A stretch of 64,000 nucleotides of DNA. Source: Microbacterium trichothecenolyticum (lineage in GTDB: Bacteria; Actinomycetota; Actinomycetes; Actinomycetales; Microbacteriaceae). The position numbers were made by a program, and so were the translations under genes. The notes under the pieces were generated by a model. That model made no database searches. It saw only the letters and a program-made list of their open reading frames with translations, and had not been told where the DNA came from. The DNA lies in assembly GCF_030818955.1 (NCBI RefSeq), contig NZ_JAUTBF010000001.1, forward strand, positions 1-64,000, in the 5' to 3' direction. Shown one piece after another: positions 43,873 to 56,363 of this stretch; position 1 is the stretch's first letter, and every line of letters begins with the position of its first letter.

Positions 43873-45030
43873 ATGACGTCCCACCCCGTCGACGCCCCGT
43901 CCACCGCCGTGCGCTCGGGTCTGCTCGATTCACCGCCCGAGGAACGCTTCGATCGCATCACGCGTCTCGCGCGGGAACTGTTCGACGTCGATTACGCGCT
44001 CGTGAACGTCATCGACGGCGACGAGGCGTACACCAAGTCGCAGCCGGACGGCCCGCGCATCGGACGAACGCCGCTGCGCGACGTGTTCTGCGGCGAGACG
44101 GTGAAGCAAGACGGTGTCTTCGAGATCACCGATGCGGCATCCGACCCACGCTTCCGCGACTCCGCGTCGGTGGTGGATTACGGCATCCGGTTCTATGCGG
44201 GGATTCCGTTGCGCACCGGCGAGGGGGATGCCATCGCCACCCTGTGCCTGCTCGACACCGACGAGCGCGAGCTCGACGACCATCAGCGACGGGCCCTCGA
44301 ACGTCTCGGACGGTGGGCTCAAGCCGAGGTCCGCGCCAGCGGCGGCCTCACCACCACGGAGCCGGCGACCACGGCGGGAGTGCGCGAGGACAGCCTCACC
44401 ACGGAGGGTATGCGCCTGGCATCACTGGCCATTCCGCACGGTCTCGTCAGCGGCGACCGCAGCGGGTGGCAGCACGTCGGCGGGCGCGTGGTGGTGACGC
44501 TCGCGGACGCCATGGGCAAAGGCGAAACAGCGGGAGAGGTCGCCGAGACCCTGCTGCAGGCGCTGCAGTCCCGTCGCGACGATGAGCCCGCCGAGGCGAT
44601 GCTCGCGGCAGAGAAGGTGGTGTTCGGTGACGAGCGTAACCCGGACACCTTCGCGACGGTGTTCCATGCCGTGGTCGACGCCGGTTCCGGGCTGATCGAC
44701 TACGTGGATGCCGGGCACGGGCTGACGCTCGTGCTGCGCGCCGACGGTACCGACGAACGCTTGAGCTCGCACAATCTCCCGCTCGGCCTGCGTCCCGCCG
44801 ACGTGGGATGGGAGGCCGGCCGCACCCGGGTCGGGCGGGGCGACCTGATCGTGAGCGTCTCGGACGGTGCGCTCGACGCCTACGACTCCACGTTGGCGAG
44901 CCTGCGAATGATCGGTGACGACCTGCGCGCCGCTGCCGGCACCGATGACTTCTTCGACGAGCTCGCGTTGAAGGTCTCGACGCATCAGGTCGACGACGAC
45001 GTCACCGCCGTCGTGCTCGCGGTCAGCTGA
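43873..45030 (+). CDS. GAF-PP2C (SpoIIE-type) serine phosphatase
   Basis: 385 residues: GAF domain about 10-165 (ALVNVIDGDEAYTKS, GIRFYAGIPLRTGEGDAIATLCLLD) and a PPM/SpoIIE phosphatase about 190-385. Metal-binding aspartates are present in LADAMGKGETAGE, VSDGALDAYDS and VDDDVTAVVLAV, so it should be active. Such enzymes dephosphorylate STAS anti-anti-sigma proteins. A STAS/RsbW-like pair lies on the opposite strand at 47568-48312, so this is the likely third member. ATG 43873; upstream frame unsupported. Confidence 0.88.
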   Translation: MTSHPVDAPSTAVRSGLLDSPPEERFDRITRLARELFDVDYALVNVIDGDEAYTKSQPDGPRIGRTPLRDVFCGETVKQDGVFEITDAASDPRFRDSASVVDYGIRFYAGIPLRTGEGDAIATLCLLDTDERELDDHQRRALERLGRWAQAEVRASGGLTTTEPATTAGVREDSLTTEGMRLASLAIPHGLVSGDRSGWQHVGGRVVVTLADAMGKGETAGEVAETLLQALQSRRDDEPAEAMLAAEKVVFGDERNPDTFATVFHAVVDAGSGLIDYVDAGHGLTLVLRADGTDERLSSHNLPLGLRPADVGWEAGRTRVGRGDLIVSVSDGALDAYDSTLASLRMIGDDLRAAAGTDDFFDELALKVSTHQVDDDVTAVVLAVS

Positions 45031-45084
45031 GCGCAGGCGCCGAGGCCTCGGCATCCCCCGTCCATCGTCCTCGGGCGAGAGCCG

Positions 45085-47571
45085 TCAGCGGGGGATGACC
45101 GAGAAGAGGAATCGCTTTCGCACCATGAACAGGATGAGCCCGATGACCACGCTGTGAATCAGCGTGCCCTGCCAGAGGCTGCCCCGATCGAGGCCGGGGA
45201 TGTTGGCGACGGCGAGCACGAAGAACACGTGGACGATGAACACGTAGAGACTCGCCTGGCCCAGGGGGATCCACAGCCACCCCATGCTCTTGTTCAGGGG
45301 TTTCCAGGCCACCGTGAGCACCGTGTAGCTGCACACGAGCACCAGGGGCAGATCGAGCAGTCGCCCCCACCGCAGGAAGATCCGCTGGTAGCCGGTGTCG
45401 TAGAGGCTGGCGTACAGGTCGGCGGGGAACGGCACGGGGGTGAAGCCGTAGGCGTTGCCGGCCCAGAGATAGACGAGAAAGCCGGCGTAGCCGACGACGA
45501 ACACGCCGAGGCCGACCTTGCCCGGAAGGGTCGTCAGCGCACGAACGATCTGCCGACGGTAGTAGCCGATCACCAGGCCGTGCGTGAACAGCACCTGCCA
45601 CACCGCCAGCGGGAAGAGCGCATCGAACTGCGACGTCAGCCGCACCGCACCGGGGACCAGGGTATGCACCGCGTACAAGCCCCAGCTGATCACGAGCACG
45701 AGCCACCACAGTCGCCGCTTGATGAGCCACATCAACGCCGGATACGCCAGGCTCAGCACGACGAACAGACCCATGATGCTGATCGGCCAGGGGCCCATCT
45801 CCAGGAGCAGGAGCTGCCGCACGGCGTACCACGGCGGCGGATAGTCGAGCAGTCGCTCGGCATTCGGGTACAGGTCGTAGACGCGGCCCGAGTCGCCGCT
45901 GCCTCCTTCGCCGGTCCCGCGGTCGGTGAACGTGGTCACCGCCGAGGTGTCGACGAAGGGGAGGAACCCGATCGCGAAGATCAGCAGCGTGACCGCGAGA
46001 GCCACGAGATACTGCTTGCGCGCGCGACCCCACGCCGCGACCGCACTCGCCCATTCGCCCCCGCGGGCGGCCGCCAACGGGAACACCATCCCGAGCACGA
46101 TGCCGCTGAGCAGCACGAACATCTCGGCGCCGGTGATCGCGCCGACCACCTTGAGCGATGCGAACGCGAACGGGCTGGTCACCTCGATGTGGGTGACGAC
46201 CACGACGACGATGACGAAGCCACGGATCATGTCGATGCGCAGATCGCGAGTGGCCGAGGTGTCGTCGTAGCGCCACTTCGGAAGCGCCCTGCCGACGATC
46301 CCGGATGCCAGGAACGCGACGGCCAGGACGGCGGCGCTGCCGGTGATCCAGTTCATCTCCTCGTTCGCACTCGCGCCGCCCTGTCGCACCTGGACGGTCG
46401 CGGCGGAGCCCTGCTCGGCGGTGACGACCGTCGTCACCGGTCCCCAGCGGATCAGCCCCGATGACTCCAGGTCGGCGCGCAGGGCGGCAGCCAGCTCGCC
46501 GTTGGCCGTGGCGCGCCAGTCGACCTCTTGACCGCCCGCCTCGGCCTCTTCGCGCACGACCTCGAGCCAGGTCACCCCCGTCACCAGGGGGTGGGCGGGC
46601 AGTTCGGCGAGCACCTGTCGCCACCAGCCCTGCTTGACCGCGAGTTCGGTGTCGCCGCCGCGGTCGAGGTCGTAGAGCGCCCCCGTGTCGAGCACCAGGG
46701 GCTTGCGTTCCCCGACGGCGAAGCGGTCGTAGAAGGATTCGCGCTGACCGCCCGTATAGCCCCAGCGTTCGGCGAGCCGAGCGGCCACTTCCCCGTCCTC
46801 GGGGGCGGTGTTGGTCTCGAGCGGCACGTCACGACCCGCTGCCGCCGCCGCCTCGCCCTTGCCGAAGTAGTACATCGTCAGACCCACGCGGTCCACCGTG
46901 TCGGCGGAGGGGAAGTACGGGCCGTACGGGTCATCGGCCTCGGTGATGAGACCGTCGCCGTCGGTGTCGAGAGCCACCTGATCACGAACGGTCAGATCGT
47001 CGAGACGGCCATCCGCCCGCTCGAAGGGATAACCGGCGCCGTACGACGGGCTCCAGACCGTCTCGGCACCCGAGGCGCCGGCGTGCACGGCATCCGCCAC
47101 TCGTTCGAAGGCACGAACATATGCCGTCGGCTGTTGGCCCCACGACACCCATGACCCATTCATCTCGGGGGCGAAACGCACGAGCTGGATCGCGTCGCTC
47201 TGCGTGCGGTATCGCTCGAGACGCGTGTTCAGTTCTGCGGCGTCGTTGTCGGTCAACGCGTCGAGGTCGGTCGACGGCTCGAGTGTGATCTCGAGCGCGG
47301 CGCCCTGAGCGGCGACCTGGGTCGCCGCTCGGTCCCACTCCGCGATGGATCGGGCATCGAGCGGATACGACACGCGCACCGCGTACACGGCGGGCGTCTC
47401 GCCCAGGCGGTCGCGGTAGCCGTCGGGGCCGTCGTCGGCCCAGTCCAGCTCGGGCCCGAACCAGACGCCGTCGTCGGTGAGGGAGGCGGCCCCCGCGGGC
47501 GCGGCCATGCCCAGAAGGAGCGCTGCGGCCAGGCCCACGGCCGCCCCGATCCGTTGGTGCGCGCGCGTCAC
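45085..47571 (-). CDS. Secreted GH26-like domain fused to OpgC-type acyltransferase
   Basis: 828 residues. Signal peptide 1-28 (AAPAGA-A); GH26-like domain about 30-385 with candidate acid/base Glu about 136 in RFAPEMNGSWVSWG; then a membrane helix about 406-425 and an OpgC acyltransferase domain about 440-828 (RDLRIDMIRGFVIV, about ten helices). At the place where a GH26 nucleophile Glu is expected the sequence reads PLVLDTGALYD. The GTG start overlaps the RsbW-like stop (GTGA). It probably trims or binds a beta-mannan-like polymer and acylates it. Confidence 0.78.
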   Translation of the reverse strand: MTRAHQRIGAAVGLAAALLLGMAAPAGAASLTDDGVWFGPELDWADDGPDGYRDRLGETPAVYAVRVSYPLDARSIAEWDRAATQVAAQGAALEITLEPSTDLDALTDNDAAELNTRLERYRTQSDAIQLVRFAPEMNGSWVSWGQQPTAYVRAFERVADAVHAGASGAETVWSPSYGAGYPFERADGRLDDLTVRDQVALDTDGDGLITEADDPYGPYFPSADTVDRVGLTMYYFGKGEAAAAAGRDVPLETNTAPEDGEVAARLAERWGYTGGQRESFYDRFAVGERKPLVLDTGALYDLDRGGDTELAVKQGWWRQVLAELPAHPLVTGVTWLEVVREEAEAGGQEVDWRATANGELAAALRADLESSGLIRWGPVTTVVTAEQGSAATVQVRQGGASANEEMNWITGSAAVLAVAFLASGIVGRALPKWRYDDTSATRDLRIDMIRGFVIVVVVVTHIEVTSPFAFASLKVVGAITGAEMFVLLSGIVLGMVFPLAAARGGEWASAVAAWGRARKQYLVALAVTLLIFAIGFLPFVDTSAVTTFTDRGTGEGGSGDSGRVYDLYPNAERLLDYPPPWYAVRQLLLLEMGPWPISIMGLFVVLSLAYPALMWLIKRRLWWLVLVISWGLYAVHTLVPGAVRLTSQFDALFPLAVWQVLFTHGLVIGYYRRQIVRALTTLPGKVGLGVFVVGYAGFLVYLWAGNAYGFTPVPFPADLYASLYDTGYQRIFLRWGRLLDLPLVLVCSYTVLTVAWKPLNKSMGWLWIPLGQASLYVFIVHVFFVLAVANIPGLDRGSLWQGTLIHSVVIGLILFMVRKRFLFSVIPR

Positions 47572-47984
47572 GTTCTTCTCGACTCCAAGGTCCACACGTT
47601 CCGGTCGCCGACACGGCGCAGGCTCAACTCGTCGACACCCGCGCTCGCCAGCGCGAGGCCGCGTCCGCTCTCTTCGTCCTCGCCGGCCATGTTCACCGAT
47701 GACAGATCGACGACCGGCGGGTCGCCGTCGTCGCGGAAGGTCGCCGACAGCACGGAGGCGTCGGCGAACAGCTCCAGGGTGAAGCGCCGATCCGCCCCCG
47801 CGCCCTCGGAATGCTCGACGATGTTGCCGGCGATCTCGATCACGGCCGTCTCGAAGCCGAAGCGCTTGGCCACGTCGACCTCGCCGACCTCGTCCCACCA
47901 GGCGGACATGGCCTCGAAGATCGTCTCCAGGCTCTCGGGCGCGACGGCGACATCGATGGAGCGGCGCGCGGCGTTCTCAGTCAC
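47568..47984 (-). CDS. RsbW-like anti-sigma kinase
   Basis: 138 residues, GHKL ATPase fold: N-box ETAVIEIAGNIVEH, G1 FRDDGDPP and G2 EESGRGLALA are complete, so ATP binding and kinase activity are expected. It overlaps the STAS gene start-to-end by 8 bases and the hydrolase gene by 4. RsbW-type kinases phosphorylate a STAS partner and otherwise hold a target protein; no sigma gene is nearby. Confidence 0.87.
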   Translation of the reverse strand: MTENAARRSIDVAVAPESLETIFEAMSAWWDEVGEVDVAKRFGFETAVIEIAGNIVEHSEGAGADRRFTLELFADASVLSATFRDDGDPPVVDLSSVNMAGEDEESGRGLALASAGVDELSLRRVGDRNVWTLESRRT

Positions 47985-48312
47985 GGAGGGCCTCGTCGAC
48001 GCTCGGGCGCGGACGCAGCACGCGGTCGAGGTTGGTCAGGCCCAGCACCATCGTCACCTGCTCCGACGGTGCCGCCAGTCGCAGGTCGCCGCCCGACTGA
48101 CGGGCGGTCTTCAGACAGGCGACGAGCGCCCCGAGGCCGGAGGAGTCGACGAACTCGGTCTGCGAGAGGTCGACGACGACGATCTCGCCGTCGCCGCGGG
48201 CGATCTCGGCCGTGACGGTCTCGCGGAACGTCTTCGCCGAAACCATCGTCAGGCGGCCGCGCGGGGTGACGACGGTGCCGCCGTCTCGGGCGTCGATGTC
48301 GACCTGGAGCAT
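47977..48312 (-). CDS. STAS-domain anti-anti-sigma factor
   Basis: 111 residues, a single STAS domain. VVDLSQTEFVDSSGLGALVA carries the phosphorylatable serine (57 or 58) after Asp56, as in SpoIIAA/RsbV. It should be phosphorylated by the RsbW-like kinase and dephosphorylated by the GAF-PP2C protein. It begins 1 base after the glycosyltransferase stop and overlaps the kinase gene. Confidence 0.9.
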   Translation of the reverse strand: MLQVDIDARDGGTVVTPRGRLTMVSAKTFRETVTAEIARGDGEIVVVDLSQTEFVDSSGLGALVACLKTARQSGGDLRLAAPSEQVTMVLGLTNLDRVLRPRPSVDEALRD

Positions 48313-48313
48313 G

Positions 48314-50338
48314 TCAGTAACCTTTCGGTTGGTGATCGGACGCGGAGTACAGCACCGCGCGGATGATGATGCTGAACACCGCGAGGTCGTACAGCACCCA
48401 GACGATGTTCACCAGCGGGGCGATGCCCTCGGCCTGGCCTACGGCGTATCGGATCGCGACCACGACGAGCGAGGCGACCAGGGCGCCCATGACCCACAGC
48501 TGCGGCTTGACGAGATCCCAGCGGGGACGGTTCTCGACCGAGCGCGTCTTCGGAGTGACCGAGAAGGTGAGCGACCGACCGCGGTAGACGTTGTCGAAGG
48601 CGCTGGTCACCGAGCGGATCCATACGGGGAAGAGGGCCAGCGAGTACTGCGCGCCGCGCCAGGTGGGTCTGCCGTTGGCCACGACGAGGAACAGCACCTG
48701 ATTGATCACGAAGAAGGGGATGAAACGGGCGAAGAAGTCCACGCTCCACGCCTGCACCGGCATGACCCCGGACGTCAGGTACAGCACGGGGGCGGCGACG
48801 TAGATGACGGCGGCGAAGCCCGACAGGTAGCTCCACATGGTGCCGAAGTACATCAGGCGTTGGCCGAGGCTGAGCCCCTTCTGCACGAGGGGGTTCTCGC
48901 GGAACATCACCTGCATGGTGCCCTGAGCCCAGCGCAGGCGCTGCGTAAGCATCGTGGACAGGTCGTCGGGGGCCAGGCCCTTGGCGAGCACCTCGTCGTG
49001 ATAGACCGACCTCCACCCGAGACCGTGCAGGCGCATGGAGGTCGCCATGTCCTCGGTGACCGAGATGGTCGCCAGCGGCATGATCGCCTGCGCCTCCTCG
49101 TCACGGCCCACGTCGAAGGAGTCCACGAGCATGCTCACCGACTCCACCGCCGCCAGCGGCGACAGGCTCCGTTCGCCGAGAGCCTCGAGGGTGATCTCGT
49201 CGAGGGCGGCCAGGGCTGCCGGGTCGCCCGTGACGGCCGCGAGCTCCTGCAGTTCCGCGCGGACGCCCGCGATGTCCTGGTCGCTGAGCTCGCGACGCAC
49301 AGCGAGGATGCGGCGCTGGAACGCATACGTGAGATCGGCCAGGGAGTCGCCGCGCGCGATCCCCGCCTTGAGGTCGTCGAGTGCCCGGGAGACGGCATCC
49401 AGGGAGGCGGCGATGCGCGGGTCGGAACCGTACTCGCGCCGCGCCCGCGCCAGTACGCGGCGGGAGGAGCGCATGCCCCGGTTCACCGCGAGGGTGACCT
49501 CTCCGACGTAGCGCGAGACACCGAGCTGCATGAGGGCCTCACGGCGCAGGAGCGCGTTGGACCCGCAGAAGAACGCGGCGTTCCAGCCGTCTTTCGACTG
49601 CTGGATGGGGCCGTAGAACAGCGGCGCCTGACTGCCGAGGGGATCGCTCGCCGGCACGTTGGTGAACCACTGCGGCGTCTGTACGAGCGCGACCTTGTCG
49701 TCTTCGAACCAGCCGAGCGTGCGATCGAGGATGTCGGGGGACGGGATCTGGTCGGCATCGAGGATGAGCAGGAACTCGCCCTCGGTGACCATGAGGGCGT
49801 TGTTGAGGTTGCCGGCCTTGGCATGACGGGGACGATCGCGCCACGCCTCGGAGCGGGTGACGACGCCGATGCCCTCGGCCTCGGCGAGGGCGCGGAGCTC
49901 AGCCCGGTCGCCGTCGTCGAGGATCCACGTCTCGTGCGGGTAGCGGATGGCCTTCGCCGCGCGCGCGGTCTCCATGACCAGGTCGAGGGGCTCGTTGTAC
50001 GTCGTCACGAGGACGTCGACGGTGACGGCGCGTTTCAGCGGTGGGGCGTCGTGCCGCTCGCGCAGGCGCCACGCGCCGAGTCCGAACAGCAGGGAGTCGA
50101 TGAGGCTGTAGGTCTCGGCGAGCACGAGGGGGACGGCGATCCACCACGACTCCCAGTTCACCGAGGCCAGCCACCGCCACACGATGTAGTTGAGGCCGGT
50201 GGCGGCCGACAGGACGACGACGATGCGCACTACGGCCAGTCGGCGGGCGCGTGAAATCTCGCGGCGTCGTGCTTCGCGTCGGAGGTCGTCGCGGGGGACC
50301 GTGGTTTCGACGATCATCTGGGTGGGAGACCTTTCCAT
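48314..50338 (-). CDS. Processive glycosyltransferase 2 (cellulose/hyaluronan synthase-like) with inserted domain
   Basis: 674 residues. Two N-terminal helices, a GT2 domain with TTYNEP, DDGD (about 141), HAKAGNLNNAL, LDADQ (DxD, about 194), VTEDMATSMRLHGLGW (about 428) and QRLRWAQGTMQ (about 467), then about five membrane helices. All catalytic motifs of a processive synthase are present. Roughly 145 residues rich in charged helices lie between GSNALLRREAL and VTED, where relatives have about 20. No PilZ domain is visible. It starts the operon with STAS, kinase and hydrolase genes. The start (ATG 50338 or 50317) is not certain. Confidence 0.88.
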   Translation of the reverse strand: MERSPTQMIVETTVPRDDLRREARRREISRARRLAVVRIVVVLSAATGLNYIVWRWLASVNWESWWIAVPLVLAETYSLIDSLLFGLGAWRLRERHDAPPLKRAVTVDVLVTTYNEPLDLVMETARAAKAIRYPHETWILDDGDRAELRALAEAEGIGVVTRSEAWRDRPRHAKAGNLNNALMVTEGEFLLILDADQIPSPDILDRTLGWFEDDKVALVQTPQWFTNVPASDPLGSQAPLFYGPIQQSKDGWNAAFFCGSNALLRREALMQLGVSRYVGEVTLAVNRGMRSSRRVLARARREYGSDPRIAASLDAVSRALDDLKAGIARGDSLADLTYAFQRRILAVRRELSDQDIAGVRAELQELAAVTGDPAALAALDEITLEALGERSLSPLAAVESVSMLVDSFDVGRDEEAQAIMPLATISVTEDMATSMRLHGLGWRSVYHDEVLAKGLAPDDLSTMLTQRLRWAQGTMQVMFRENPLVQKGLSLGQRLMYFGTMWSYLSGFAAVIYVAAPVLYLTSGVMPVQAWSVDFFARFIPFFVINQVLFLVVANGRPTWRGAQYSLALFPVWIRSVTSAFDNVYRGRSLTFSVTPKTRSVENRPRWDLVKPQLWVMGALVASLVVVAIRYAVGQAEGIAPLVNIVWVLYDLAVFSIIIRAVLYSASDHQPKGY

Positions 50339-50536: not shown

Positions 50537-50556
50537 CTGTGGGAATGAGGGCGATC

Positions 50557-51273
50557 ATGCGAGACCAGGGACAGGCCGTACCCGACATCCATGCGCTGCG
50601 CGATCGCCTCGAACGCCTCCAGGGACGTCGCATGGATGCGCCGGTGCTGCCCACGCATCCGGCCTTCTCGGCGCTTCTGCCCGGAGGGGGTCTGCGACCG
50701 GGGTCGGCGTACGCCCTGGCGCGGTCCGCGTCGCTGTTGCTCGCCCTTCTCGCCAGGCCTTCGCAAGACGGTTCGTGGTGCGGGGTGATCGGCATGCCCG
50801 AGTTGGGGGCCGAGGCCGCGGAGAAGTACGGTCTCGATCTCGATCGCCTCGTCTTCATCCCTGACCCGGGACCGCGGTGGCTGGCGGTGACGGCCACGAT
50901 CGCCGAGGTGCTGCCGGTCGTGGCGGTGCGTCCACCGATGAACTCCTCGGCTGCACGTGGGGGAGCCGAGGCCACCCGTCTGGCGGCTCGGCTGCGCGAC
51001 CGTGGGACGGTGCTGCTCGTCCAGGGCGGGTGGCCGCAGGCCGAGGCGGTGATCGATGTGGCCGACCCGCGGTGGTCGGGGCTGGGTCAGGGGCACGGCT
51101 ATCTGGCCGGGCGCGAACTGACGGTGTCGGTCAGCAGTCGTCGATCCCCGAACGTCCGACGGGCGCGCATGCTGCTGCCCGCAGCCGACGGCAGCATCGA
51201 GCTGCTGGGAGCCCCCGCCGAGCGGCTCGTCCCGCGTCAGCGCGACGGACACCGCGTCCGGGCGGTTGGATGA
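50557..51273 (+). CDS. imuA: ImuA-like RecA-fold protein of the mutasome
   Basis: 238 residues with a degenerate RecA-like fold (LPTHPAFSALLPGGGLRPGSAYAL); Walker A is not intact. ImuA-type proteins act with ImuB and DnaE2 in error-prone lesion bypass. ATG 50557 is chosen because GAGGG lies 5 bases upstream; a GTG at 50539 and an ATG at 50545 are in frame. Its stop overlaps the imuB start. Confidence 0.82.
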   Translation: MRDQGQAVPDIHALRDRLERLQGRRMDAPVLPTHPAFSALLPGGGLRPGSAYALARSASLLLALLARPSQDGSWCGVIGMPELGAEAAEKYGLDLDRLVFIPDPGPRWLAVTATIAEVLPVVAVRPPMNSSAARGGAEATRLAARLRDRGTVLLVQGGWPQAEAVIDVADPRWSGLGQGHGYLAGRELTVSVSSRRSPNVRRARMLLPAADGSIELLGAPAERLVPRQRDGHRVRAVG

Positions 51274-52817
51274 TGCACGCGCCCACGCGCAGTCTGGTGC
51301 TCTGGCTCCCCGACTGGCCCATCACGGCCTTCGCGAACGAGGCTGTCACGCCGCCGCGTGCGGATGCCGCGGTGGCGGTGTTCGCGAACAATATCGTCGT
51401 GGCCTGCTCGTGGGCGGCCCGCGCCCAGGGAGTGCGCCGCGGTCAGAAGCGCCGCGATGCCCAGGCGCTGTGCCCGACCCTGCACGTCGTCGCCGCCGAC
51501 CCCGTGCGTGACGCGCGGGCGTTCGCTCCCGTCGTGGCACGAATCGAGGAGCACGCCCCCGGGGTGCAGATCGTGCGGCCCGGACTGTGCGCGCTGCGCG
51601 CACGTGGGCCTTCGCGGTACTACGGAGGCGAGGCCGAGGCCGCGCGCGTGCTGATCCGTCTGCTCGGCGACGGCGGTGTCGACGGGGTGCGGGCGAGCGT
51701 CGCCGACGGCGTCTTCACCGCCGAGCAGGCGGCGCGGGCGACCACCGTCGACGTCCCCGTGCGCATCGTGCCACCCGGAGAGGCGGGGGCGTTCCTCGCG
51801 CCGCTGTCGGTCGCCGCGCTCGACGACGACGAGTTCGGCAGCCTCCTGGCTCGGCTGGGCGTGCATACCCTCGGCGATCTCGTCGCCCTCTCCGCCGAGC
51901 GGGTCCGCGAGCGTTTCGGCGAGCGGGGCGTGCGGCTGCACGCGCTGGCAGGCGGTCTCGACTCCCGTCCCGTCCACCCTCGCACGCCCCCGCCGGAACT
52001 GCACCGCGACGTCGCTTTCGAGCCACCCCTCGAACTCGCCGACCAGATCGCCTTCGGCATGCGCGTGGCGGCGGAAGACTTCATCGCCCGCCTGGGAGCC
52101 CTCGATCTGGTGTGCACAGAGCTGCGCGTCGTGCTCACCGGCGAACGGAACGAGCGCAGCGAACGTGTCTGGTTGCATCCGGGGTCGTTCGACGCGGCGG
52201 CCGTCGTCGACCGCGTGCGATGGCAGCTCGCCGAAGACGCCCAGGGCATCTTCGGTAGCGGTGTGGCGGGGGTGCGCATCGAGCCCGAGGCCGTCGACGC
52301 CGCCGCCCATCACACCAAAGGCCTCTTCGGCGCCGGACCCGATGAGCGCGTGCACCATGCCCTGTCACGCGTGCAGGCCATGCTGGGGCATCGTGAGGTG
52401 GTCACCCCGGTGATCGGCGGCGGACGCTGGCTGGCCGAGCGTCAGGTGCTCGTGCCGTGGGGCGACCGTGCCGTCACGACGAAGGAACGCGCTCGGCCCT
52501 GGCCCGGCAGCCTGCCCGACCCTCTGCCGGCGGTCGTCTACCCCGAGCCCCGCATGGTCGGGGTCACCGACATCGCCGGCGCTCCGGTGACCGTGGGTGA
52601 GCGCGATGTGCTGAGCGCTCCGCCGGCGGTGCTCGAGACCGCGGGGCAACGTCGGCGCATCCGGGAATGGGCCGGACCCTGGCCGATCAGCGAGCGCGGA
52701 TGGGACCCGCTGCGCGCACGGCGCGCGCACCGGTTCCAGGTGGTCGACGCCGACGGGGGCGCCTGGCTGTTGGTGGTCGAAGAGGGGGAGTGGCGGGCGG
52801 AGGGGCGCTATGACTGA
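51270..52817 (+). CDS. imuB: ImuB, Y-family polymerase homologue
   Basis: 515 residues with a Y-family fold: SLVLWLPDWPITAF at the N-terminus, RPGLCALRARGPSRYYGG, helix-hairpin-helix and little-finger regions. The metal-binding carboxylates of active polymerases are not in place, as in ImuB, which works as a beta-clamp adapter for DnaE2. The ATG overlaps the imuA stop (ATGA). The frame is open upstream inside imuA. Confidence 0.9.
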   Translation: MMHAPTRSLVLWLPDWPITAFANEAVTPPRADAAVAVFANNIVVACSWAARAQGVRRGQKRRDAQALCPTLHVVAADPVRDARAFAPVVARIEEHAPGVQIVRPGLCALRARGPSRYYGGEAEAARVLIRLLGDGGVDGVRASVADGVFTAEQAARATTVDVPVRIVPPGEAGAFLAPLSVAALDDDEFGSLLARLGVHTLGDLVALSAERVRERFGERGVRLHALAGGLDSRPVHPRTPPPELHRDVAFEPPLELADQIAFGMRVAAEDFIARLGALDLVCTELRVVLTGERNERSERVWLHPGSFDAAAVVDRVRWQLAEDAQGIFGSGVAGVRIEPEAVDAAAHHTKGLFGAGPDERVHHALSRVQAMLGHREVVTPVIGGGRWLAERQVLVPWGDRAVTTKERARPWPGSLPDPLPAVVYPEPRMVGVTDIAGAPVTVGERDVLSAPPAVLETAGQRRRIREWAGPWPISERGWDPLRARRAHRFQVVDADGGAWLLVVEEGEWRAEGRYD

Positions 52818-52904
52818 GAACGCGTCGAGCCGGCGCGGGCGGGCGGCCTCCGGGCGGGCTCGACGAGTCCACGGCGCGCCGGCCGACGGAGTGGGGGCGC
52901 GCTG

Positions 52905-55900
52905 ATGGGCTGGACCAACCCACCGGTGAGATGGTCGGAGCTCGAGCGCCTGCTCAGCGACGCCCGGCGCCCCACCGGTGCCCCGACGAACGGCGACGGC
53001 GGTGACAGCCCCGCGTGGTCGCACAAACGCGGTGCCTACGTACCGCCGTCGATCGAGCGTCCGACCGACACCGTTCCCTACGCCGAGTTGCACGCGCACT
53101 CGTCGTATTCGTTCCTCGACGGGGCGTCCTCGCCCGAAGAACTCGTCGAAGAGGCGGAGCGTCTGGGACTGCACGCGCTGGCTCTCACCGACCACGACGG
53201 CTTCTACGGCATCGTGCGTTTCGCCGAGGCCGCCGAGGCGCGAGCGGTGCGCACCGTCTTCGGGGCAGAACTGTCGCTGGGGCTCACCGCGCCGCAGAAC
53301 GGCGAGGCCGATCCCGAGGGCTCCCATCTGCTCGTGCTCGCCCGCCGAGAAGAGGGGTACCACCGTCTCGCCGCCGCGATCACCCACGCACAGCTCACGG
53401 GCGCCGAGAAGGGACGTCCGGTCTATGACATCGATGATCTCGCCGCCCGAGCCGGAGGACCGCGCGACCCGCACTGGGCGGTGCTCACCGGATGCCGCAA
53501 GGGTGCGGTGCGCCAGGCCCTGGCATCCGAGGGGCCGGCCGGTGCCGCCCGCGAACTCGACCGGCTCGTCGACCTGTTCGGCGTCGAGTCCGTCTACGTC
53601 GAACTGATGGACCAGGGTGACCCGCTCGACTCGCGACGCAACGACGTGCTGGCCGCGCTCGCCGCCGAGCGGGGGCTGCCGACCCTCGCGACGAACAACG
53701 TGCACTACGCCGCCCCGAAGAAGGAGCTGCTCGCCGCTGCCGTCGCGGCGGTGCGGGCCAACCGCGGCCTCGACGAGCTCGACGGGTGGCTCCCCGCGCA
53801 CGCCGGGGCGCACCTGCGCTCCGGCGCCGAGATGGCGGCGCGGTTCGCGCGGTATCCCGGCGCCGTGGCGCGCACCGTGACACTCGCCGACGAGCTGGCC
53901 TTCCCGCTGCGCCGCGCCAAGCCGGCACTGCCGAAGCAGAAGGTACCCGAGGGGCACACGCCCATGTCGTACCTGCGTCAGCTGGTGTGGGAGGCAGTTC
54001 CGCGCAAGTACCCGAACCTCTCCGCCGAGGATCGCGATCGGATCGAGCGCGAGCTGGGTGTCATCGAAATGAAGGATTTTCCGGGATATTTCCTCATCGT
54101 CTACGGGATCGTCAAAGAAGCGCGGAATCGCGGCATCCTGTGCCAGGGGCGCGGCTCGGCCGCGAACAGCGCCGTCTGCTACCTGCTCGACATCACCGCG
54201 GTCGATTCGATCTTCTACAAGCTCCCCTTCGAGCGGTTCCTGTCGAGCCTGCGCGACGAGGAGCCCGACATCGACGTCGACTTCGACTCCGACCGCCGCG
54301 AAGAGATCATCCAGTGGGTCTACCAGGAGTACGGGCGCGAGCGCGCGGCACAGGTGGCGAACGTCATCCAGTACCGCCCCAAGAACGCCGTGCGTGACAT
54401 GGCCCGCGCGCTCGGGCACTCGCCCGGCCAGCAGGACGCGTGGTCGAAGCAGGTCGAGCGCTGGGGCGCGACGCTCGAGACGGGGGCCGACCACGACATC
54501 CCCGATCAGGTCATCGAGTTCGCGTCCGAGTTGCTGAAGGCGCCGCGGCATCTCGGCATCCACTCCGGCGGCATGGTGCTCACCGATCGGCCGGTGGGTG
54601 AGGTCGTGCCGATCGAGCACGCGCGCATGGAAGATCGCACGGTCATCCAGTGGGACAAAGACGACGCCGCGTGGATGGGGCTGGTGAAGTTCGACCTGCT
54701 GGGCCTCGGCATGCTCGCGGCGCTGCAGTACTGCTTCGACCTGATCCGGGATGCCACGGGCGAGACGTGGGAGCTGTCGACGCTGCCGAGAGAAGAGAAG
54801 GCGGTGTACGACATGCTGTGTCGCGCCGACTCGATCGGGGTGTTCCAGGTGGAGTCGCGCGCGCAGATGGGATTGCTGCCCCGCCTGCAGCCGCGGAAGT
54901 TCTACGACCTCGTCGTGCAGATCGCGCTCATCCGGCCCGGGCCGATCCAGGGCGGCGCCGTGCACCCGTTCGTGCGGCGCAAGCTGCGGCAGGAGCCCAT
55001 CACCTACGTGCACCCCGCGCTCGAGCCGGTGCTCGAACGTACGCTGGGGGTGCCGGTGTTCCAGGAGCAGCTCATGCAGATGGCCGTCGCCGTCGGCAAC
55101 TGCACCGCCGAAGATGCCGATCTGCTGCGCCGGGCGATGGGGTCCAAGCGCGGGCTCGAGCGCATCGACTCCCTGCGCGAGAAGCTCTACGCGGGCATGG
55201 CTGCGAACAATCTCGTCGGGAGGGTCGCCGACGAGCTGTACGCGAAGATCCAGGCGTTCGCGAACTTCGGGTTCGCCGAATCGCACTCGCTCTCGTTCGC
55301 ACTGCTGGTCTATGCCAGTTCGTGGATCAAGCTGCACTACCCAGCGGTGTTCCTCGCGGGCCTGTTGCGCGCGCAGCCGATGGGCTTCTACTCGCCGGCG
55401 ACCCTCACCGCCGATGCTCGACGACACGGCGTGGTGGTGCGACGGCCCGACCTGTTGCGCTCGGGGGTACAGGCGGGTCTCGAACTCGTCGACGACGGGG
55501 AAGCAGCGCGGGAGGAGGAGGGAGCCGACGTTGCGAACCGGGGCGGCCGGGGTGCGCCGACGGGAATCGACTCCTGCGCCCACGCGCAGCAGCCGCCCAC
55601 CGGCGAGTTCGACCCGTCGGCACCCGACGAGACCCTCGCTCATCGTCGCGACGGCGGGTTCGCCGTGCGTCTCGGGCTCGCTGGCGTTACCGGCATCGGC
55701 GTGAAGGTCGCCGAGCGCATCGTCGCCGAGCGCGAGCGGGGCGGTCCATACCGGGACCAGCGCGACCTGGTGCGCCGCACGGGGCTCGTCACGGCACAGC
55801 TCGAGGCGCTCGCGACGGCGGGAGCGTTCGAGTGCCTCGGCCACACCCGGCGCGAGGCCATCTGGCTCGCGGGATCAGCGGCACAGGACCGCCCCGAGTT

Positions 55901-56363
55901 CCTGCCGGACTCCCTCGTCGCGGTGCAGCCACCCCTGTTCACCGATCCCTCCAGCTACGAGGTGCTGGCGGCCGACCTGTGGGCGACCGGACTCTCCACC
56001 GACGACCACCCGCTCACCCATTTCCGCGCGGCTCTCGATGCGCGCGGAGTGCTCACCTCCCGCGAACTCCGAACCTTCGAGACCGATCGCCGCATCGAGG
56101 TGGCGGGGCTCGTCACCCACCGCCAGCGTCCGGCCACGGCATCCGGGATCACCTTCCTCAACCTCGAGGACGAGCACGGTCTGATGAACATCATCTGCTC
56201 GGTGGGGGTATGGAACAGATATCGCCGCGTCGCACGGGAATCGCCCGCCCTCATCGTGCGGGGCATGCTCGAGCGCTCGGTCGAGGGAGTGACCAACGTC
56301 GTCGCCGACGGCTTCGTCGACCTGCGCGTGGGGGTCGCGCATGCCTCACGGGACTTCCGGTGA
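52905..56363 (+). CDS. dnaE2: Error-prone DNA polymerase III alpha subunit DnaE2
   Basis: 1152 residues: N-terminal PHP domain (YAELHAHSSYSFLDGASSPE, about 55-320), palm with the catalytic aspartates in EPDIDVDFDSDRREE (about 452-466), fingers, helix-hairpin-helix and OB fold (ITFLNLEDEHGLMNIIC). It is the polymerase of the ImuA-ImuB-DnaE2 mutasome and makes most damage-induced mutations in actinobacteria. The ATG lies just after the imuB region; expression is probably under the LexA-like box at 50517. Confidence 0.95.
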   Translation: MGWTNPPVRWSELERLLSDARRPTGAPTNGDGGDSPAWSHKRGAYVPPSIERPTDTVPYAELHAHSSYSFLDGASSPEELVEEAERLGLHALALTDHDGFYGIVRFAEAAEARAVRTVFGAELSLGLTAPQNGEADPEGSHLLVLARREEGYHRLAAAITHAQLTGAEKGRPVYDIDDLAARAGGPRDPHWAVLTGCRKGAVRQALASEGPAGAARELDRLVDLFGVESVYVELMDQGDPLDSRRNDVLAALAAERGLPTLATNNVHYAAPKKELLAAAVAAVRANRGLDELDGWLPAHAGAHLRSGAEMAARFARYPGAVARTVTLADELAFPLRRAKPALPKQKVPEGHTPMSYLRQLVWEAVPRKYPNLSAEDRDRIERELGVIEMKDFPGYFLIVYGIVKEARNRGILCQGRGSAANSAVCYLLDITAVDSIFYKLPFERFLSSLRDEEPDIDVDFDSDRREEIIQWVYQEYGRERAAQVANVIQYRPKNAVRDMARALGHSPGQQDAWSKQVERWGATLETGADHDIPDQVIEFASELLKAPRHLGIHSGGMVLTDRPVGEVVPIEHARMEDRTVIQWDKDDAAWMGLVKFDLLGLGMLAALQYCFDLIRDATGETWELSTLPREEKAVYDMLCRADSIGVFQVESRAQMGLLPRLQPRKFYDLVVQIALIRPGPIQGGAVHPFVRRKLRQEPITYVHPALEPVLERTLGVPVFQEQLMQMAVAVGNCTAEDADLLRRAMGSKRGLERIDSLREKLYAGMAANNLVGRVADELYAKIQAFANFGFAESHSLSFALLVYASSWIKLHYPAVFLAGLLRAQPMGFYSPATLTADARRHGVVVRRPDLLRSGVQAGLELVDDGEAAREEEGADVANRGGRGAPTGIDSCAHAQQPPTGEFDPSAPDETLAHRRDGGFAVRLGLAGVTGIGVKVAERIVAERERGGPYRDQRDLVRRTGLVTAQLEALATAGAFECLGHTRREAIWLAGSAAQDRPEFLPDSLVAVQPPLFTDPSSYEVLAADLWATGLSTDDHPLTHFRAALDARGVLTSRELRTFETDRRIEVAGLVTHRQRPATASGITFLNLEDEHGLMNIICSVGVWNRYRRVARESPALIVRGMLERSVEGVTNVVADGFVDLRVGVAHASRDFR

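What the first reader, a model, noticed from the sequence alone, without database searches (positions are those of the whole stretch)
43873..50338. Exopolysaccharide operon with a built-in partner switch
The sequence shows GT2 synthase, STAS, RsbW-like kinase and GH26-like/OpgC genes on one strand with a 1-base gap and then 8- and 4-base overlaps, and a GAF-PP2C phosphatase facing them. The conserved STAS serine, kinase N/G boxes and phosphatase aspartates are all intact. Partner switching normally controls sigma factors, but no sigma gene is near. SypA/SypE in Vibrio fischeri control a polysaccharide this way. I infer that phosphorylation of the STAS protein, set by a GAF-sensed signal, directly gates the synthase or hydrolase.
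Basis: partly seen in the sequence, partly recalled or inferred. Interest (0 to 1): 0.82.

Follow-up and report, generated by a model that had tools for sequence, protein, structure and literature searches.

The report
Phospho-switch tied to a glucan synthase
A set of signalling proteins that usually turns gene-reading factors on and off is here, in many actinobacteria, tied to one cellulose-synthase-like enzyme, and in one genus a signalling protein is even fused to that enzyme, so these bacteria probably switch a surface polysaccharide on and off by direct protein contact.

Summary
Observation confirmed: GT2 synthase, STAS, RsbW-like kinase and GH26-like/OpgC genes share the minus strand (1-base gap, 8- and 4-base overlaps) and face a GAF-PP2C phosphatase. 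The synthase is BcsA-type, has no PilZ match, and carries a roughly 155-residue helical insert just before the TED motif.

In 82 loci with this insert, STAS is near in 75 and the kinase in 79, always on the synthase strand. Fifteen fetched synthases without the insert have no STAS, kinase or PP2C nearby. Five sister loci with a shortened insert lack the kinase yet keep STAS beside the synthase (3) or fused to it (2, Pseudoclavibacter); all five lost the phospho-serine, which 100 of 100 STAS copies with a kinase in the locus keep. One of 10 Microbacterium relatives with these five genes has a SigB/F-type sigma factor.

Best reading: a partner switch whose direct output is the synthase; unphosphorylated STAS probably activates it and the kinase opposes. 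Docking, polarity, signal and polymer are inferred. Against: 34 kinase loci lack such a synthase nearby, four Curtobacterium genomes lost STAS from the operon, and SigB/F-type sigma factors are enriched in insert genomes. SiaABCD is the nearest precedent.

The parts
48314..50338 (-). GT2 synthase of the BcsA type (674 aa), catalytic motifs and FxVTxK motif intact, no PilZ domain matched
49064..49516 (-). region of the alpha-helical insert (about residues 275-425) between the two halves of the catalytic domain, directly before the TED helix; candidate docking site
   Evidence: in the loci examined it occurs with STAS nearby or, in four Curtobacterium genomes, with STAS elsewhere in the genome (L178: contig ends)
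47977..48312 (-). STAS protein (111 aa)
48142..48144 (-). codon of the presumed phospho-serine S57 (DSSG; assignment by homology, recalled)
   Evidence: kept in 100 of 100 STAS copies with a kinase in the locus, lost in 5 of 7 without
47568..47984 (-). RsbW/SpoIIAB-type HATPase kinase (138 aa)
45085..47571 (-). GH26-like domain (signal-peptide-like start, by eye) fused to an OpgC-type membrane acyltransferase (828 aa); frequent partner but not core
43873..45030 (+). GAF-PP2C (SpoIIE/RsbU-type) phosphatase (385 aa), presumed sensor and STAS phosphatase

Best explanation
A partner switch whose direct output is a processive beta-glucan-type synthase. The GAF-PP2C phosphatase, on a cytosolic signal, dephosphorylates STAS at S57. 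Unphosphorylated STAS docks on the cytosolic side of the synthase, most likely at the helical insert that precedes the TED helix, and lets it work. The kinase phosphorylates or sequesters STAS and shuts the synthase down. Shown here: gene content, order, conservation, the fusion, loss of the phospho-serine with the kinase, and restriction of the insert (among the synthases examined) to STAS-linked ones. Inferred: physical docking, the insert as docking site, the polarity, the signal and the polymer.
For: Linkage: among 82 insert-bearing loci (80 distinct) STAS is within 3.5 kb in 75 and the kinase in 79, all on the synthase strand; PP2C is within 4.5 kb in 71. By genome in the family, 45 of 46 with the insert also have the kinase, against 19 of 253 without. 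Control: 15 GT2 loci without the insert (15 of 49 such hits fetched) have a 5-7 residue junction and no STAS, kinase or PP2C in the fetched region. Fusion: GT2-STAS, Pseudoclavibacter. Phospho-serine: DSSG in 100 of 100 STAS with a kinase in the locus; 5 of 7 without have lost it, and those five genomes show no full-length RsbW-type kinase. Insulation: two genomes carry two complete systems, and each gene is closer to its counterpart in the other genome than to its in-genome paralogue. Sigma: 29 of 46 insert genomes have no SigB/F-type homologue at E<=1e-25, nor do 9 of 10 Microbacterium genomes with the five genes. Precedent: unphosphorylated SiaC binds and activates SiaD, phosphorylation prevents it (PMC8457831, passages).
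Against: Stand-alone cassettes exist (34 kinase loci examined without the insert, 32 of them with STAS; 19 of 64 kinase-positive family genomes lack the insert), so the module can serve something else. The SigB/F homologue is enriched in genomes with the insert (17 of 46 against 20 of 253, p 1.6e-6); the window's own genome has one, and so do both Modestobacter genomes searched. Curtobacterium (4 genomes) lost STAS from the operon and kept the kinase there, though all four have STAS elsewhere. One STAS (L136) keeps DSSG with no kinase found. In two of the five altered STAS (L188, L190) the second serine remains. No complex could be modelled. One GGDEF match (28.1 bits, cut-off 23.8) and the PilZ-less but c-di-GMP-binding BgsA (title and abstract) leave c-di-GMP control possible.
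Confidence: 0.68

Rival explanations
1. The kinase itself is the effector. As RsbW holds its sigma factor, it binds and inhibits the synthase, and STAS only relieves it.
For: Kinase adjacency (79 of 82) is slightly higher than STAS adjacency (75 of 82). Curtobacterium keeps GT2-kinase together without a local STAS.
Against: Where the kinase is gone from the locus, STAS stays with the synthase or is fused to it (5 of 5 sister loci, also L121 and L136); a pure anti-kinase would then have no job. All four such Curtobacterium genomes still have STAS elsewhere.
Confidence: 0.15
2. A conventional anti-sigma system acting on the SigB/F-type sigma factor at G000:C1:1231002-1231688 or another sigma, merely parked beside the synthase and perhaps controlling its transcription.
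For: The family is classically sigma-directed. The window's genome has such a sigma (224 bits, below the TIGR02980 cut-off of 234). Insert genomes are enriched for it; both Modestobacter genomes have a homologue.
Against: Not found at E<=1e-25 in 29 of 46 insert genomes, nor in 9 of 10 Microbacterium genomes with the same five genes. Only 5 of 137 loci have any gene matching the two sigma queries. It does not explain the GT2-STAS fusion or the insert.
Confidence: 0.1
3. STAS is a fixed structural or lipid-contact subunit of the synthase (as the STAS protein MlaB is for an ABC transporter), and phosphorylation is a secondary brake; or the switch controls assembly, not catalysis.
For: STAS survives kinase loss and is fused in one lineage. 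MlaB as STAS partner of MlaF: title and abstract only (PMC7367683, listing).
Against: The phospho-serine is kept in all 100 STAS copies that have a kinase in the locus, so phosphorylation matters where it is possible.
Confidence: 0.07

Closest known systems
SiaABCD of Pseudomonas aeruginosa (PP2C, kinase, STAS-like SiaC, diguanylate cyclase SiaD)
   Same: Four-part layout; an enzyme and not a sigma factor is the direct output; the unphosphorylated STAS-like protein binds and activates, phosphorylation prevents binding (PMC8457831, passages).
   Different: SiaC is DUF1987; the output makes c-di-GMP, not polymer. Here the output would be the polymer synthase itself.
Bgr partner switch and BgsA in Sinorhizobium meliloti (mixed-linkage beta-glucan)
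   Same: STAS-based switch upstream of a cellulose-synthase-like glucan synthase (seen only as a cited title and one passage in PMC8457831; BgsA from a title and the start of an abstract).
   Different: There STAS acts on a diguanylate cyclase and c-di-GMP acts on the synthase; here no GGDEF protein is among the five genes.
SypA/SypE of Vibrio fischeri
   Same: STAS protein with a conserved serine controls biofilm formation that depends on a symbiosis polysaccharide locus (PMC4517449, passages).
   Different: SypE switches between kinase and phosphatase; SypA's mechanism is called unknown in that 2015 abstract. A later paper on it (PMC10120452) was seen only as a listing.
RsbU/RsbV/RsbW-sigma B
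   Same: Same three protein families.
   Different: Output is sigma B; here no sigma gene is linked in most loci.
Bacterial cellulose synthase BcsA
   Same: Fold and catalytic motifs, FxVTxK motif.
   Different: No PilZ domain matched; a large insert before the TED helix instead.

Membership tests
Rsb/Spo partner-switching module | STAS protein with phosphorylatable Ser in the DSSG-type motif | tested here: met
   TIGR00377 above cut-off
Rsb/Spo partner-switching module | HATPase kinase of RsbW/SpoIIAB type with N and G boxes | tested here: met
Rsb/Spo partner-switching module | PP2C (SpoIIE/RsbU) phosphatase with metal-binding Asp | tested here: met
Rsb/Spo partner-switching module | kinase phosphorylates STAS, PP2C removes it | not testable with these tools
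   biochemical
Sigma-directed (RsbVW-SigB) switch | sigma gene linked to the switch genes | tested here: not met
Sigma-directed (RsbVW-SigB) switch | cognate SigB/F-type sigma in the genome | tested here: inconclusive
   present unlinked in the own genome, in 1 of 10 Microbacterium relatives and 2 of 2 Modestobacter, in 17 of 46 insert genomes (enriched)
BcsA cellulose synthase | BcsA fold and D,D,TED,QxxRW motifs | tested here: met
BcsA cellulose synthase | C-terminal PilZ c-di-GMP domain | tested here: not met
   no PilZ match; below the TIGR03030 CelA equivalog cut-off (344 of 699 bits)
SiaABCD | DUF1987 SiaC and GGDEF output | tested here: not met
   STAS here is PF01740/PF13466; no GGDEF match in the five proteins
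GH26 | GH26 profile match | tested here: inconclusive
   window domain none at E<=1, Modestobacter homologue 30.9 bits; weak PDB matches of the family profile
GH26 | both catalytic Glu | tested here: not met
   A8 (10 rows): acid/base Glu kept in the window; Asp for Glu at the presumed nucleophile in 8 of 10 rows; the assignment of both residues is recalled

The most novel reading that the evidence does not exclude
A processive cellulose-synthase-like enzyme is gated directly by a STAS partner switch. Unphosphorylated STAS docks on a purpose-built helical insert next to the TED (finger) helix, taking the place of PilZ/c-di-GMP control. In Pseudoclavibacter the switch has been hard-wired by fusing a STAS without the phospho-serine to the synthase.
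Probability: 0.58. Interest if true: 0.87.

Novelty: new variant of a known kind. Interest (0 to 1): 0.77.

Why it matters
Partner switches are mostly known as controllers of sigma factors, with a few diguanylate cyclases as enzyme targets. A polymer synthase as the direct target would give actinobacteria a phospho-controlled way to turn a surface glucan on and off that need not pass through c-di-GMP. It would explain how PilZ-less BcsA relatives can be regulated, and it offers a clean natural series (free and phosphorylatable, free and locked, fused and locked) for work on the mechanism.

Tried and rejected
Sigma output: searched in the own genome, 299 family genomes, 14 genomes of named loci (L030's was not held) and 137 loci; not favoured, but the enrichment and the Modestobacter homologues are reported. 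Hydrolase/OpgC as target: rejected as core (GH near in 46, OpgC in 42 of 82 loci). Fold relatives of the insert: none at E<=0.001 (model pLDDT 78). Mirror-tree over 70 loci: all gene pairs correlate above shuffles, but shared species history also gives this, so little weight is put on it. Kinase tree of 111 rows: 17 label changes between GT2-linked and stand-alone rows (mean of shuffles 29.5, 0 of 500 as low); the clade with the window's nearest relatives is 44 of 45 GT2-linked, others mix, so loss of the synthase or re-use of the switch has happened repeatedly. The window's own kinase was not a row of that tree, and I dropped L027, L091 and L092 as duplicates; L027 and L091 are one contig, so that Curtobacterium genome was left out altogether.

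Literature: ten searches listed no paper on a STAS partner switch acting directly on a cellulose-synthase-like enzyme. Lists were capped in some (20 of 670, 10 of 20, 10 of 16), and the library lacks most subscription journals. Seen besides passages: the outline and abstract of PMC8256260; PMC9495663 holds none of the terms partner, bgrR, phosphatase, STAS.

Not done: complex prediction (no tool), a PF01740 scan of the whole own genome, PP2C scans of the Curtobacterium and Pseudoclavibacter genomes. Of the kinase hits away from an insert, only G226's locus was not fetched. An early insert alignment (A2) had two rows out of frame; it was replaced by A4.
Full report
WHAT IS THERE. On the minus strand: GT2 synthase 50338-48314, one base, STAS 48312-47977, kinase 47984-47568 (8-base overlap), GH26-like/OpgC 47571-45085 (4-base overlap). 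On the plus strand and convergent: GAF-PP2C 43873-45030. Pfam agrees for the synthase, STAS, kinase, OpgC and GAF/SpoIIE parts. The GH26-like part has no Pfam match of its own, but a Modestobacter homologue does. The genome is 3.7 Mb and the closest named loci are Microbacterium.

THE SYNTHASE. A profile of its family matches BcsA structures best, and its predicted model (pLDDT 82) matches BcsA first. DDG, DAD, TED, QRLRW and an FSVTPK sequence are present (the role of FxVTxK as BcsA's gating loop is recalled). No PilZ domain is matched. Between the two catalytic halves lies an insert of about 155 residues (82 loci: 147-179), predicted as a helical bundle with no fold relative at E<=0.001. It ends just before the helix that starts with TED. 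That this helix is BcsA's translocating finger helix is recalled, not tested.

THE LINKAGE. The search for related loci with the kinase gave 15 named loci. Ten of ten Microbacterium loci have the same five genes in the same arrangement; three Geodermatophilaceae have PP2C-GT2-STAS-kinase on one strand; two Curtobacterium have GT2-kinase-GH/OpgC without STAS or PP2C in the fetched stretch. In 299 genomes of the family the kinase profile hits 64 genomes (E<=1e-10) and the insert profile 46 genomes at 48 places (E<=1e-8); 45 of the 46 are in both lists (Fisher p 6e-37). In 394 genomes of the class the insert is in 23. I fetched 47 of the 48 family places (the other is the window) and 20 of the 21 further class genomes; the last, a broken copy (L215), is not counted below. 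STAS is missing in the Curtobacterium loci (6 rows, 4 genomes) and in L178, where the contig ends. The kinase is missing in L121, L136 and L178. PP2C takes many positions: upstream, downstream, opposite strand, or fused to the kinase (L105, L127, L139-L141). GH/OpgC is optional. Persistence through so many rearrangements argues for selection on the association.

CONTROL SYNTHASES. The C-terminal half of the synthase was searched in the same 299 genomes. The 48 best rows (368-437 bits) are the insert loci. Five rows at 301-324 bits form a sister group. The other 49 rows (counted from the listing) score at most 131 bits. I fetched the five and 15 of the 49. The 15 have a 5-7 residue junction where the insert would be and no STAS, kinase or PP2C match at E<=0.1 in the fetched regions; one (L196) has a GAF match alone. 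By the coordinates, one of the 49 (G068) has a kinase hit within about 10 kb, and it belongs to a neighbouring insert locus.

THE NATURAL EXPERIMENT. The five sister loci (two genus codes) keep a shortened insert (113-114 residues) and keep STAS, but show no kinase or PP2C in the region. In three STAS is a separate neighbouring gene; in two (L191, L192) it is fused to the C-terminus of the synthase. All five have lost S57 (TASG, TAAG, TASG, TPAG, TPAG); in L188 and L190 the following serine remains. Across 107 STAS copies, 100 of 100 with a kinase in the locus have DSSG; of 7 without, five are the ones just named, one is DSTG (L121, whose genome has a kinase-STAS-PP2C cassette elsewhere, L138) and one is DSSG (L136, genome G198). 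A kinase search of these genomes at E<=1e-3 found only partial matches of 21-22 bits in 500-residue frames in three of the five, and nothing in the other two or in G198. The serine is therefore tied to the kinase, while STAS itself is tied to the synthase. A STAS that served only to relieve the kinase would have no use there.

CURTOBACTERIUM. Four genomes have GT2-kinase-GH/OpgC without STAS. All four carry a second kinase with STAS elsewhere (L143, L144, L208, L209), in the two mapped cases near the same neighbour families as the kinase-STAS-GT2 locus of a congener (L120). STAS can thus act in trans, but that is inferred.

SIGMA. The own genome has one SigB/F-type sigma at 1.23 Mb (224 bits, under the family cut-off). 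A homologue is present at E<=1e-25 in 37 of 299 family genomes; 17 of 46 insert genomes have it and 29 do not. That is an enrichment (20 of 253 elsewhere, p 1.6e-6) and counts against my reading unless phylogeny explains it. Of ten Microbacterium genomes with the five genes, one (L018) has it at 401 bits; the other nine show only a match of about 63 bits in frames of 453-471 residues, taken to be the main sigma factor. The two Curtobacterium genomes show only matches of about 63 bits; both Modestobacter genomes have a homologue at about 160 bits (L030's genome not held). Of 137 loci, three (L180, L181, L184) have a gene 83-84% identical to the own genome's primary-type sigma (type judged by eye), in L180 and L184 within 1 kb of the cassette, and two (L168, L169) have another sigma about 4 kb away.

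STAND-ALONE SWITCHES. Twenty-seven loci fetched as L138-L164 and seven as L208-L214 have the kinase without the insert-bearing synthase in the fetched region; 32 of the 34 have STAS and 27 have PP2C (my counts). Neighbours read by eye as housekeeping genes such as sucCD, pcrA and ppc. Nineteen of 64 kinase-positive family genomes have no insert. In a kinase tree of 111 rows (few columns, many forks unresolved; window not a row) the clade with the window's nearest relatives is 44 of 45 GT2-linked, while another part mixes both. The switch is therefore not universally bound to this enzyme. In two genomes with two complete systems each gene is nearer its counterpart in the other genome than its in-genome paralogue (for example kinase 66% and 45% against 33% and 30%), as expected for two insulated switches.

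MECHANISM. The simplest reading is that of SiaABCD: unphosphorylated STAS binds and activates the enzyme, kinase phosphorylation prevents this, PP2C restores it (SiaC/SiaD from passages of PMC8457831). The polarity is inferred from lineages with a STAS lacking S57 and a synthase with intact motifs: if unphosphorylated STAS were inhibitory, the synthase would be permanently off yet conserved. The insert as docking site is inferred from its restriction, among the synthases examined, to STAS-linked ones. The polymer is unknown (a beta-glucan or related, from homology). Input may be branched: a second GAF-PP2C, 62% identical, lies elsewhere in the own genome, which has only one STAS_2 match (PF01740 was not scanned genome-wide).

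NOVELTY. Non-sigma enzyme targets are known (SiaD; the cyclases of the Hsb and Bgr systems, one passage), and a switch upstream of a glucan synthase through c-di-GMP is known for S. meliloti (seen only as a cited title and that passage). No paper listed in ten searches describes a STAS switch acting directly on a cellulose-synthase-like enzyme. I rate it a new variant of a known kind.

Noticed in passing
L191, L192 (also P0121, P0122): GT2-STAS fusion proteins (P0121 is named Pseudoclavibacter) with a degenerate phospho-site; central to the argument but outside the window.
   Followed up: yes
window 45085-47571; L026, L028 (alignment A8): The GH26-like domain has Asp for the presumed nucleophile Glu in the window, Microbacterium and Curtobacterium rows, and Curtobacterium L026 has Gln for the acid/base Glu: perhaps a glucan-binding pseudo-enzyme next to an acyltransferase.
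   Followed up: partly
L166 (G000:C1 about 2324521-2325669) and L167: A second GAF-PP2C, 62% identical to the window's, and a PP2C with an apparently membrane-bound N-terminus (by eye) lie elsewhere in the genome, with no STAS or kinase match beside them; the genome has only one STAS_2 match: possibly several inputs on one STAS.
   Followed up: partly
L105, L127, L139-L141: Kinase, GAF and PP2C called as one protein (about 535 aa), so opposite activities on STAS may sit in one chain.
   Followed up: no
L138-L164, L208-L214: Stand-alone STAS-kinase(-PP2C) cassettes beside housekeeping genes, in some lineages at the same site (pcrA to sucCD) where relatives also hold the synthase; their target is unknown.
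   Followed up: partly
L215 (G627): In a small genome of another family of the class the synthase is broken into pieces and only a PP2C piece of the switch was matched in the fetched region.
   Followed up: no
window 50539-56363: By eye an imuA'-imuB-dnaE2-like SOS mutagenesis cassette starts divergently next to the synthase (the first gene has no Pfam match); a perfect inverted repeat GTTAGAA-N6-TTCTAAC lies just upstream of it.
   Followed up: no
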